Positions 4,601 through 49,600 of a DNA stretch of 64,000 nt are shown piece after piece. The stretch comes from Glandiceps talaboti (lineage: Eukaryota; Hemichordata; Enteropneusta; Spengelidae). The notes under the pieces are model-generated. The model was not told the DNA's origin. It did no database searches and worked only from the letters and a program-made list of their open reading frames with translations. The stretch spans positions 13,799,012 through 13,863,011 of the forward strand of contig NC_135564.1 in NCBI RefSeq assembly GCF_964340395.1, given 5' to 3'. Position 1 is the stretch's first letter, and every line of letters begins with the position of its first letter. A program made the position numbers and the translations under genes.

Positions 4601-7600
4601 GACCCCACCTAGCTTTTCACTGCCGACCCTAAACTTTTTTTTTACATATTCGAGAAAAAAGTAATAAAATCGCAAAAATTGTTAAAATCTTTAAAAAATA
4701 TACAAATTTAATACATTCAAGAAACCCAAGAAATGATATATGGTAAATGCTTAGCTCATATTAAACGCAAAACACAAATGAGACACTTATAATTATGATA
4801 ACAAATAACACAAAACATACATAACAAAGTGTATGTGGAGAGTAAATGTAAGTCCTTAGCAACCATAAGTAGCAATTACATAGCAACCACAAGTAGAAAC
4901 TCCATAGCAACCATGAGTAGCAACTACATAAATATTTGTGTTTGTGCATAAAGAAAGTGGGGTAAGAGTGTTTCATACAAAGTAAACTTTGCCAGATCTT
5001 TATGAATAACAAGCAAACATGTAATGGCGGCCAACTGCAGTGTTTTTGCTACGGTTTGGTAACCCCTGGTAACAGAAAGAGATAAAAGAGGTAAAATTGG
5101 CATGATTTCCCATATTTTACACCATATTTTTGTCTGAAGACATTGGCAAATTGACTTGGGAACTCAGGTAGATGTACTTACGCTACCAACTTGAGCTAAA
5201 ATACTGGTGGGGAATCCTCAAAAATGACTGGGGAACTCAGATAGATTTTACCTACTTTCCACCCTTTAGCAAAAACACTGGTAGGGTACCCTGGTAAGTT
5301 AATTGATTGGGCCCTGGGTAACTCAGGCAGAAATTGCCTAATTTGACCCTTAACAAGAACATTGGTTGAAAACCCTGGTAAAATGACTAATAGGAATTAT
5401 ATCTGCTCAGCAAAATCATTGGCATAGAATAATAGAACCCTGGTAAGTAGATAAGGCCATGGTATTGGGAGGTAGATTTTATTACCCAACAACTCTTTAT
5501 TAAAAAAAGTGGTAGGGAACCCCAGTAAATGACTGGAGAACTCAGGCAGCTTTTACCTACTTTTCACTCGTAACTAAACCACTTACAAACTGAGCGTTCA
5601 GCATGAACATCAGTAATAACAGTACAGTCAGCAGTGTGAGAAGTCAACATTTAACAAGAACTATCTAGATTGACTTTTTTTCCTTTTATTTTCTATATAG
5701 TTCAGTAATGTGACTGGTGTGTGTATTGCTTGGGGTCTTGGCTCTGCCTGTGATACTTTGTTCTCTCAGGTAATGACTCTCTTATCACATGAAAATGTCT
5801 ATCTTATTCACAGAGCCAAAAGATTTCTTGGAAGCAAATCCAAAATGTTTACAAGTATCTCATCGGCATTGTCAGGGGTGTACTACCGGTACAATGGGCT
5901 GTTATCACACGTCTGGAAAGAGAGAAATGAAAGGAGTTAGAGTTTTATCACTTCTTCCAAGACACATAACAGCCCGTGGTAATACACCCCTGATAATGTG
6001 CCCTCTAATGATAGCCAAATTTTGTTGTTGTGGGTCAGTATGATAAAAACTGGCATTTCTTGTGAGTCACCACATAGTAAGAGATAGGGGAACACCAAAT
6101 TTTGTTGTGTCACTAGTAATTGTGTGCGTCAGTGGCACGTCAAATTGGCTTAATAGAGGGTGTGCACACTGACCCCTGATAATGCTGATGAGACATCAGT
6201 AAAAATTGTGAATTTGCTTCCAATTTTTGTGTGTGACATCTTTGATACTATAAACCTTATAGAGTCCATGAACATTGATTCTAGTAATGATCTGTAATAG
6301 TTAAAGTGGTTCTATTTCGATTTTCTTTATTTCTAATATTATTTTCTCTATATTTCAAATAAAATTTTTGATATTGGCACAATAACTATTGTTTCCTCTC
6401 ACTTTTTTTTCCTATTTCCTACTAGATCACTGTCTTATCAGAGTTTACCAACTCTGCATTAATTAGTAGATTGCTAGTCAAACTAGTTAACAAAGGTAAT
6501 TCATACACTTTCCTGACCGGCACTATAATGAAATTTAGTGCTGTCAATTAATTGCTCATTTGCATAATTAAGTGCATAATTATATGTTTTGATATGAAGT
6601 ATAAATCATCATCACTTCTGGAATTCTTGTAAATATACAGAGTTATGGCAGTACTAACAAAAAGATGGTTGGTGTGATGTTACAAAGAAGTCTTCTAATT
6701 ATGGCTGTAACTTGTATTATCACCTGGGCTATATACCTCAATGCAGAGCTAATCATAGTAGGACTTCAAATAGACAGACGTATAGCAAGGTAAGTTATAT
6801 CAGGTGTTTATAGACTTTTAATAGACAGTGAGTCCACTCCACTATCTTAGTGTCTATAAATAGACAGACATATAAGGCGTTTATAGACTTCAAATAGACA
6901 GTGAGTCCACTCCACTATCTTAGTGTCTATAGATAGACAGACATATAGCAAGGTATGTTATATCTGGTGTTTATAGACTTCAAATAGACAGTGAGTCCAC
7001 TCCACTATCTTAGTGTCTATAAATAGACAGACATATAGCAAGGTATGTTATATCAGGCGTTTATAGACTTTTAATAGACAGTTAGGCCACTCCACCACTA
7101 TCGTAGTGTCTATAAATAGACAGACGTACAGCAAGGTACACTTTTATATTTTGTCTCCATCAAATGAAAATAACTAACCATGTCTTTAATCACTGACAAT
7201 GTTTCCCCCCCTCCCCCCCCAATTTCCTTTCTCTCTCAATTTTAAAGACATTTTTGACACGGCAACAGCATTTCCTATTTAAACATTTTAATAACTTTTT
7301 CAATTTGTAGCACCTAATCCTAATCAGACATTAATATAAAAATTTGTGTGTTTTTGCCATTTTATTTTGACAGAGCTTCAGCCCTGTATGTTCAGATGTA
7401 CATGGCAGGAGTGCCAGTAAGTTTGTCAACTTTTTAAATAGATGAAAATATTGTTCAGTTATCGTAAAGATATAGAATAGCACTGATTGGTGTATTTGTG
7501 GGAATTCTCAATCTGATTAAAATCTGATGTGGTGAAAGTGGCGAGATGTCTTTATTTACCTCTACTTCCATCGTGTTGTGTCATTTGTTTGTTCTGGGTG

Positions 7601-46600: not shown

Positions 46601-49600
46601 ACATTTGTGCCAGGTTTGGTTGAAAAACTGGCTCATGCAATTCAGAGATACACATGGACACGACGGCACAGGTGGACAGATGGATGCATGCATGTATGGA
46701 CGGACAGACAGACGGACACATATGCAATAATTAGCACTACCTACCATAAGTATGATCTCTCATTCCTCTCAATGATAGTTGTCTTTCTTCATAACCTTCA
46801 ACATAGATTCTACCATCTAGTTGACCCCACTGTTCATAATGAGTTTGATGAGTCCTGTCAAAGTAAATGCAATTCATTTAAATCTTTGAAAGTGTTTATA
46901 ATACTTACTTTTATGTTCATAAAACTTACTTTTATAGTGTTTCATAACACTTTTATAGTGTTACATAATACTTACTTTTATAGTGTTTCATTACACTTAC
47001 TTTTATTATGGTGTTTCATAACACTTACTTTTATAGTGTTTCATAACACTTACTTTTATAGTGTTTCATAACACTTACTTTTATAGTGTTTCATAACACT
47101 TATTTTTATAGTGTTACATAACACTTACTTTAAAGTGTTTCATAAAACTTACTTAAAGTGTTTCATAACACTTACTTTCATAGTGTTTCATAACACCTAC
47201 TTTTAAAGTGTTACATAATACTTACTTTTGAAGTGTTTCAAAGAATTGTTTAGACCATGGTTCCCTAGCAATACCGTCAGCTATTAAGAATGGATGCAAT
47301 TCTGTGTCAAAGTCAAAATAATCCGTGTATGCTTTCCACCTGAAATAAAGAAACATAGTAAACGTTAGTAGTTCAAGTCAATTCTATCCAGTCTTTTCTC
47401 AATTTCTAATATCTACTGTAAACATGTGAAATTTTGTATGCTGTCTAACAATAGCCCCATCTACATATAGGTCATCCTACCTGAGGCAGTCCCAAGTCCT
47501 ACCTGAGGTAGGATAGATTTGTGTCTACACGTAGGAAGGTTGTGGCGTAGATGTCGCACGTTCCCCCCTGACTCCATCCTGACTGTACATAAGACGAAGT
47601 CAGGAGGGTTTCAGGAAACCTCTCGAACTGTCCTAAGTCAGGACAGTTTCAGGACAGTTTCAGGACACGTTTGCTTCTACACGGGTTTCAAACTATCCTG
47701 AATCCTACCTCAGGTAGGATTTTTAGTGCCGTGTAGATGGGGCTAATACCTTATTAGTGACAGTGAAAATTTCCTGTCCAAGCATCAACAAATTTGTACA
47801 AAATGGATCCTACACTTTTCACTGAAATCTCGTCATCAATACTTTTGACATCAGCGAAAATCACACTTCATTTTTCATGAACCACATTAAACTCTGTGAG
47901 TAGAAATTTTCTTCTATAACTATGACCATGAGTCAATGAATATTCATTCTCGCAAACACATTTCAGAAAGAAATATGAAAACAGAACTTTAGCCCACTTG
48001 CAGCACAGAAACTACAGCATATACCTACAGCACAGAAATCTATAGCATATACTTACAGCATGCAAAACTATAGCGTACTGTATGCTTACAGCTCAGAAAA
48101 CTATAGTGTATACTTACAGCAAGGAAAACTTGACATGTACCAACTGGTCTTCACTACAATCTTCACTCACCGTGTTACGAATACCAATCCTGTGAGTGGA
48201 AGTAAAAACAGTACATGTAATATTCTAAAGCATACAGCCAAAACTTTCTTCAAGAACATCCTTGGTCAAAATACTAATAAAAGATTTTCTCAACAGTACA
48301 CTTCTATTCTGATAGCATCATCAGAAGTTATATTACCTATTAATGACATACTGCCTGTTCTGCAGATCAACAGACTTTTAAATTATCAGACTCTCGTTGC
48401 GTTATTTTTTCTACCACTAAGTGATTGAAACAAGGATATACAGGATAGTTTCTAATATTACAGAGTTTTGGTCATGCCATAAAAAAAACTGAACTTCATT
48501 CAACATAGGAATACGGTGAAGAGTTGGTGGAGTGTTTCTTTGTCAGGGCATATCCTTAAACCCTGGGCCTTAATTGCCTTGGGGCTGGCCTTACATGTAC
48601 AGGGATATCAATAAATGTATGGAATAGAATAGAATGGAATCTTTATTGCATCTGCCAAGAAAACTACATATCTTCATTGCATTTTCTGCAATAAGTATTT
48701 GGTGCTAAAACAAACTAGTAAATATATAAACTACAGTTTTTAACTCTGTATAATGTCTTTCCTTTGATGAGTGCTGAAGTTATCAATAATGTAACTCTTT
48801 ATCTATTATCAAAGAAGAATTTTGTGTTGAATTACATGTATCGTAAAATTCACTCTTATTTTCTATTTTCAAGACCATATACAAGCAAAGTTGTATGCAT
48901 CCACACAGAAAACACAAGATTTATTGTATTTACTTCAGCTGAATGGAGCCAAGTATGTGGAACTAACATCTAAATAATCCAAAGACACCAACCTACAAAT
49001 TCCGTTGAAGTTGATTTTCCAGGTTCTCATTGGTTCTACCATTTCAAAGGTCAAGCCCAAAGCACTAAAGCTGTCATTCTGTGATGTATGTACTATACCA
49101 TCAGGATGCAAAGGTAGCTCTAGGTCACCTATACCTGGTAAGTGTATCAAAAACCACACTTCCATAATCTGATTATGTCGACGAGCTAACCTCAGAACCA
49201 ATCCAGTTCCATCTTTGTTGAACCCATTGAAATATACAGAGTCCATGGCCTACATAGAGAGTAATAACTAACATATTACACAGAGTCCTGGGCCTACTTG
49301 GAGAATGGTTAAAGGCCAAAAAAGAAAACGAATTGCTTCTGTTCAGTGCGCGCATCACTTAAATACCCTCCCATCGGTTGGTCTTTTTTTTTCGTGTTCA
49401 TCCAGCCCATGCAGTCTGCAGATCCAGGGGAGAAACACAAAAATAACCCTCCTACTTCAGTGAAGACAACTGCATAGCCAATCATGAGTACAGTTTCTTA
49501 CTACATTTTGCCGAAGTGAAATGAACTACACTAACACATGCCATCCTACAGACATCAAATGAACACCGCGAAGGACATTTTATGTGCCCTTCATCGGGTG

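What the first reader, a model, noticed from the sequence alone, without database searches (positions are those of the whole stretch)
6770..49305. Tandem arrays built from exact exon-intron borders recur across both complete genes
At least eight junctions (MATE exons 4 and 9; phosphotransferase-like exons 3, 4, 22, 24 donors and 18, 26A acceptors) sit at the edge of minisatellites whose unit contains that junction, including a few exon codons and the splice consensus. Two more have a single echo copy. Ordinary minisatellites should not start at splice sites so often. Ideas: replication or transcription-coupled slippage at borders, R-loop or RNA-templated duplication, or selection for spare splice sites. 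I recall a report of border-associated intronic minisatellites at the amphioxus Adh locus, which I could not verify; if so this would support a cephalochordate source and a genome-wide process.
Basis: partly seen in the sequence, partly recalled or inferred. Interest (0 to 1): 0.9.

Follow-up and report, generated by a model that had tools for sequence, protein, structure and literature searches.

The report
Duplicated splice borders in acorn-worm introns
Two genes of an acorn-worm-like animal carry small tandem repeats whose unit contains an exon-intron border; this matches the 'mirages' already described in amphioxus, and much of it can be explained by ordinary DNA duplication that introns tolerate.

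Summary
In a MATE gene and a 40-exon rifampicin-phosphotransferase-like gene, 8 of 108 splice sites (6 donors, 2 acceptors) sit in or within 8 bp of a tandem array whose unit contains that border; two more have one echo copy. The source is not amphioxus: the phosphotransferase is closest to hemichordates (Ptychodera 66%, Saccoglossus 62%, Branchiostoma 46%). Amphioxus 'mirages' (PMC3087553, PMC3902484, passages seen) have the same anatomy. Eight myosin loci of the same genome, chosen by exon number before their repeats were seen, add 7 border arrays. Excess is less clear. Letting a founding duplication fall anywhere not wholly exonic, 15 are seen against 4.9 expected (myosins alone 7 against 2.6, P=0.011). 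But splice sites are echoed no more than intron interiors (7.4% against 9.1%), and genome-wide donor nonamers are not tandemly repeated more per occurrence than reversed controls (about 4% against 3-6%, wide errors). Conserved spare donors are not supported. Best reading: ordinary minisatellite expansion tolerated across splice borders; a known kind, new in hemichordates.

The parts
1606..16530 (+). MATE transporter gene, 15 coding exons (span, introns included)
   Evidence: model, one 675-residue frame; Pfam MatE 1.6e-43
19636..53335 (-). Rifampicin phosphotransferase / PEP-synthase-like gene, 40 coding exons plus alternative exon 26A; start codon position inferred
   Evidence: model; PPDK_N and PEP-utilizers; Ptychodera protein aligned exon by exon
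6768..7138 (+). Donor array at MATE exon 4 (junction 6789/6790), unit about 90 bp
   Evidence: TRF itself starts at 6797
11874..12307 (+). Donor array at MATE exon 9 (junction 11875/11876), 37 bp x 11.7
   Evidence: 12 of 12 copies shown keep GGTAAGT
47996..48130 (-). Donor array at phosphotransferase exon 3 (last exon base 48118), 28 bp x 4.7
46884..47240 (-). Donor array at phosphotransferase exon 4 (last exon base 47226), 25 bp x 14.6
38098..38348 (-). Acceptor array at phosphotransferase exon 18 (first exon base 38093), units 64-76 bp
   Evidence: TRF edge 4.5 bp from the junction
35642..35764 (-). Donor array at phosphotransferase exon 22 (last exon base 35743), 30 bp x 4.1, 100% matches
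33700..34127 (-).
31935..32127 (-). Acceptor array at alternative exon 26A (first exon base 31952), TRF periods 13-49 bp
   Evidence: exon identified by 62% identity to Ptychodera
1724..2230 (+). MATE exon 1 donor (1734/1735) and its single echo copy 484 bp downstream
   Evidence: 2 mismatches in 22
49238..49305 (-). Phosphotransferase exon 2 acceptor (49249/49250) and its single echo copy 44 bp upstream
   Evidence: 4 mismatches in 22

Best explanation
These are 'mirages': minisatellites founded by a short tandem duplication that happened to include a splice border, then expanded into the intron. Shown: the arrays, their border-containing units, the high donor scores of many copies, the repeat-rich introns, and the same arrays in other genes. 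Inferred: duplications of a donor (or acceptor) are nearly neutral because the exon-proximal copy, which for donors is transcribed first, is the one spliced; duplications inside exons are purged, so surviving arrays look anchored at exon edges. No dedicated machinery is needed; a modest extra bias towards borders, donors above all, may exist.
For: 22-mer echoes at 9.1% of intron-interior positions, 8 of 108 splice sites (7.4%), 1.4% of exon-interior positions, 0 in shuffled sequence. Many array copies score as donors as high as the true site, and in all six donor arrays of the window the first in-frame stop lies at +1 to +75, so the inner copies lie past a stop or out of frame: the exon-proximal donor must be the productive one. 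Border arrays also in 5 of 8 myosin loci. Genome-wide pair counts of donor nonamers per estimated occurrence do not exceed those of the reversed control. Donor motifs in copies are conserved in some arrays and decayed in others.
Against: Under the founding-unit null, which already grants this tolerance, border arrays exceed expectation: window 8 against 2.2 (P=0.0007, but the window was chosen for the finding), myosins 7 against 2.6 (P=0.011; with period 20 or more 2.2 expected, P=0.003), combined 15 against 4.9. Donors exceed acceptors, 11 of 117 against 4 of 118, Fisher P=0.067. A pure neutral model does not predict either, though purging of acceptor copies through splicing could give the second.
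Confidence: 0.66

Rival explanations
1. A border-targeted process (for example co-transcriptional R-loops or breaks where U1 or the spliceosome engages, or RNA-templated repair) duplicates exon-intron borders more often than other DNA.
For: About threefold excess over the founding-unit null in the window and in the independent myosins; donors favoured. PMC3087553 calls the mechanism unclear (passage).
Against: Genome-wide donor-nonamer pairs per estimated occurrence are not higher than for reversed controls; splice sites are echoed no more than intron interiors; a strong donor motif (score 9 or more) is in 1 of 48 array units of loci L009-L030, and in 1 of 48 of the same units reversed.
Confidence: 0.17
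2. The copies are kept by selection as spare or decoy splice sites.
For: Four window arrays (phosphotransferase exons 3, 4, 25 and MATE exon 9) mutate less in the donor nonamer than elsewhere: 10 of 390 against 92 of 984 cells; two intergenic arrays with a similar motif show no difference.
Against: MATE exon 4, L031 and L033 show the reverse. Over the eight arrays counted the pooled rates are 32 of 594 against 130 of 1715, mean rank 0.40, P=0.18. The second copy in L029 has lost its donor and the upstream copy in L035 its acceptor. Inner donors in the window lie past an in-frame stop or shift the frame.
Confidence: 0.07
3. Assembly artefact: arrays created or stretched by misassembly at repeats.
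For: Minisatellites are error-prone in assemblies (general knowledge); no reads could be examined.
Against: In most arrays copies differ from one another in graded ways, several independent loci show it, and units differ from locus to locus.
Confidence: 0.05

Closest known systems
Amphioxus 'mirages' (globin genes BflGb6 and BflGb9, PMC3087553; Adh3, cited there)
   Same: [quoted passage not shown] units 150-160 bp in the globins, 10-72 bp in Adh3; many copies carry splice signals; regular splicing reported undisturbed (passages seen)
   Different: This genome is an enteropneust hemichordate by protein similarity. Here density was counted: 11 of 117 donors and 4 of 118 acceptors in the genes examined. 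Allele length differences and somatic instability, reported for amphioxus, were not examined.
Lancelet PGBD5 border repeats (PMC3902484)
   Same: [quoted passage not shown]
   Different: One gene; the passages seen suggest the acorn worm lacks a PGBD5 orthologue and say nothing of mirages in hemichordates.
Intron gain by tandem genomic duplication (e.g. PMC4974935, seen only as a search listing with the start of its abstract)
   Same: Short tandem duplication that can copy splice signals
   Different: No new intron shown here; existing borders are copied.
Ordinary intronic minisatellites
   Same: TRF-detectable arrays of short units with diverged copies
   Different: The unit includes a splice border.

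Membership tests
Mirages (border-spanning minisatellites, amphioxus) | Tandem repeat unit contains an exon-intron junction with exonic bases and splice signal | tested here: met
   8 of 108 window sites; 7 of about 127 myosin sites
Mirages (border-spanning minisatellites, amphioxus) | Both 5' and 3' borders can be affected | tested here: met
   11 donors, 4 acceptors
Mirages (border-spanning minisatellites, amphioxus) | Correct splicing is not disturbed | not testable with these tools
   No RNA; only the frame argument and protein homology on both sides of the junctions
Mirages (border-spanning minisatellites, amphioxus) | Copy number differs between alleles or cells | not testable with these tools
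   One assembly, no reads
Mirages (border-spanning minisatellites, amphioxus) | Found in a cephalochordate (where reported so far, not part of the anatomy) | tested here: not met
   Closest proteins are hemichordate
Ordinary intronic minisatellites | Position independent of splice borders | tested here: inconclusive
   15 against 4.9 expected, but equal echo coverage and no higher genome-wide pair rate
Selected spare splice sites | Splice motif in copies more conserved than the rest of the unit | tested here: not met
   Mean rank 0.40 over 8 arrays, P=0.18; met in 4 arrays, reversed in 3, no variation in 1

The most novel reading that the evidence does not exclude
Splice borders, donors above all, are preferred sites for founding minisatellites in hemichordates as in amphioxus: a border-targeted duplication process older than the chordate-ambulacrarian split that keeps supplying spare splice sites, alternative exons and new introns.
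Probability: 0.15. Interest if true: 0.78.

Novelty: new member of a known kind. Interest (0 to 1): 0.42.

Why it matters
The two amphioxus papers seen here describe mirages gene by gene. In this hemichordate they occur at roughly one donor in ten of the genes examined (11 of 117), which makes a quantitative test possible: is a splice border a hot spot for tandem duplication, or just a place where duplication does no harm? The answer bears on how introns and alternative exons arise, and on how the spliceosome picks the exon-proximal site among up to a dozen similar copies.

Tried and rejected
Cephalochordate source: rejected by protein similarity. A COX1 check of the species was asked four times and not answered. 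The last MATE exon found nothing convincing among solved structures (best E 0.57).

Spare-donor conservation: looked strong on four window arrays; not supported when the eight donor arrays of 2.8 or more copies were counted together. The three two-copy donor arrays (L029, L034, L035) were left out of that count.

Motif test on array units (best donor score 9 or more, forward against reversed unit): window genes 5 of 22 against 3 of 22; window intergenic 0 of 11 against 1 of 11; loci L009-L030 1 of 48 against 1 of 48. Not informative.

A 70-base MATE exon at 6426-6495 was dropped because it broke the frame. The L029 array at 3503-3686 (reverse-strand numbering) contains no border that I could find, nor does L031 5565-5897 (by eye). 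L035 1209-1316 ends 4 bp before an acceptor, but its copies resemble the border only weakly; not counted. Unannotated exons in the myosin loci may hide further hits or non-hits.

Single donor nonamers could not be counted genome-wide, nor the GT-to-AT control pairs, so the per-occurrence rates rest on 18 random regions of 173.6 kb and Markov estimates.
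Full report
What is there. The window lies at C17:13799012-13863011 of a 590 Mb assembly of 47 contigs; its G+C is 35.6%. It holds two convergent genes. The plus-strand gene is a MATE transporter of 15 exons and 675 residues (Pfam MatE, 1.6e-43). The minus-strand gene was built by hand as 39 exons in one frame of 1,240 residues; it carries PPDK_N and PEP-utilizers domains. 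The 52 introns of the two models are all GT-AG. The Ptychodera flava protein P0001 aligns along the minus-strand gene and adds a first coding exon near 53335-53051 and an exon 26A at 31952-31868. That makes 108 splice sites, 54 donors and 54 acceptors.

Source. Of 1,628 proteins matched (120 listed), the best are Ptychodera flava (66% identity) and Saccoglossus kowalevskii (62%); Branchiostoma lanceolatum follows at 46%. The genome is therefore taken to be an enteropneust hemichordate, not amphioxus. The species is not known.

The border arrays. TRF gave 81 rows in the window. After merging rows of period 10 or more, 23 arrays touch the gene spans used and 5 cross a listed junction; the exon 26A acceptor, identified later, makes 6; two more arrays end 7.5 and 4.5 bp from a junction and the border copies are plain in the sequence. 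The eight: donors of MATE exons 4 and 9 and of phosphotransferase exons 3, 4, 22 and 25; acceptors of exons 18 and 26A. Two further sites have a single echo. Many copies score as donors as high as the true site, others lower; in the six donor arrays the first in-frame stop after the true junction lies at +1 to +75, so the inner copies lie past a stop or out of frame. Splicing itself was not observed.

Is it more than chance in the window? Three answers. (i) Placing the 22 non-coding arrays at random: if they may not touch exons, 7 within 8 bp of a junction against 0.7 expected, no placement of 4,000 reaching it; allowing 30 exon bases, 2.7 expected, P=0.014; 60 bases, 4.4, P=0.13; 100 bases, 6.5, P=0.49. 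(ii) Letting each array's founding unit fall anywhere not wholly inside an exon, 8 against 2.23 for 23 arrays, P=0.0007; the window was chosen for the finding, so this P is not independent. (iii) Simple echo coverage: a 22-mer centred on a splice site has a near copy (4 or fewer mismatches within 1.5 kb) at 8 of 108 sites, 7.4%; intron interiors 9.1% of 5,000; exon interiors 1.4% of 1,500; shuffled 0 of 1,500 (an earlier run with microsatellites left in gave 8 of 107 and 12.2%). Borders are echoed about as often as intron sequence. (ii) and (iii) can both be true because a long array covers many interior points but a border only if its founding unit held it.

Other genes. Myosin-head exons were located in the same genome by Pfam PF00063 (78 matches) and parts of eight loci were fetched by number of exon matches, before any repeat in them had been seen (L029-L036). 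Exons were set by tblastn with a myosin recalled from memory and by splice scores: 30 introns paired automatically and 14 further exons proposed in the gaps, about 127 sites in all by my count. Thirty arrays of period 10 or more were found. Seven hold a border: donors in L029 (117 bp x 2.0), L031 (31 bp x 11), L033 (29 bp x 2.8), L034 (141 bp x 2.0) and L035 (50 bp x 2.0); acceptors in L033 (66 bp x 2.0) and L035 (TRF period 51; about 100 bp by eye). None was found in L030, L032 and L036. The border calls, the site total and an assumed 120 bases per exon are mine, not a program's. Expected under the founding-unit null, 2.63; P=0.011 for 7 (0.039 for 6); with the window, 15 against 4.9, P=3e-5. 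Donors 11 of 117, acceptors 4 of 118, Fisher P=0.067.

Genome-wide counts without annotation. MAGGTAAGT, 14-44 bases, MAGGTAAGT occurs 1,536 times on both strands; the pattern read backwards 580 times. Singles could not be counted genome-wide. In 18 random regions (173.6 kb, drawn from contigs C1-C17) there were 11 donor and 3 reversed nonamers, scaling to about 37,000 (19,000-67,000) and 10,000 (2,000-30,000); Markov models from the same regions predict 14,000-18,000 reversed. Pairs per occurrence are then about 4% (2-8%) for donors and 3-6% for the control, with wider error: no sign of enrichment for strong donors with short units. By the rows listed, C1 holds 8 such arrays and C2 to 23.9 Mb about 10, or by extrapolation some 180 in the genome. 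My inference from this is that border arrays at strong donors are rarer genome-wide (of the order of 1%) than the 11 of 117 in the genes examined; only one of the 11 donor arrays here has the exact nonamer, so the comparison is loose. It is a point against taking the one-in-ten rate as the genome's.

Do the copies look selected? In four window arrays the donor nonamer departs from its consensus in 10 of 390 cells against 92 of 984 elsewhere, while two intergenic arrays with a GTAAGT-like motif show no difference (8 of 136 against 20 of 345; 25 of 162 against 61 of 478). But MATE exon 4, L031 and L033 show the reverse; over the eight arrays counted, 32 of 594 against 130 of 1715, mean rank 0.40, P=0.18. 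L029's copy has lost its donor.

What is known. PMC3087553 (passages seen) describes 'mirages' in two amphioxus globin genes, cites Adh3 and other loci, and proposes them as a source of new introns; its reference list names the Adh paper as Canestro and colleagues, Nucleic Acids Research 2002, which is not held. PMC3902484 (passages seen) reports the same in lancelet PGBD5 and mentions Adh and troponin C. The library searches made (with hemichordate terms) listed no paper whose title or abstract start reports it in hemichordates; most subscription papers are not in that library, so it may be in print elsewhere.

Verdict. It is the amphioxus mirage in a hemichordate, frequent enough in the genes examined to be counted. 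The simplest account is minisatellite expansion tolerated across splice borders, with the exon-proximal site used. A threefold excess in the examined genes keeps a border-specific bias alive; the echo coverage and the genome-wide pair counts do not show one.

Noticed in passing
window 31868-31952 and 30302-30392 (-): Exons 26A and 26 are alternative versions of the same protein segment; Ptychodera resembles 26A more (62% against 42% identity). A tandem exon duplication whose probably older copy carries an acceptor mirage; mutually exclusive use is inferred.
   Followed up: partly
window 16781-17263 and 17766-18373: Two long arrays with a GTAAGT-like motif on the minus strand lie between the 3' ends of the convergent genes, next to no exon known to me; used as a control.
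   Followed up: partly
window 16181-16243: Coding minisatellite in MATE exon 15, 18 bp x 3.5, giving a repeated TEETND peptide.
   Followed up: no
window 40031-40189, 41300-41360, 55445-55884: A dispersed family with GTCTGTAAGGTACGCC-like sequence, once in a 71 bp x 6.2 array (otherwise by eye).
   Followed up: no
window near 17460-17670 and 29230-29720: Short inverted repeats (CACTACATCAGATTTTAATC and near complements) that look like MITE ends; by eye only.
   Followed up: no
G000 C2:7468355-7469099: Donor-nonamer pairs on both strands within 750 bp in the pattern listing, suggesting inverted arrays.
   Followed up: no
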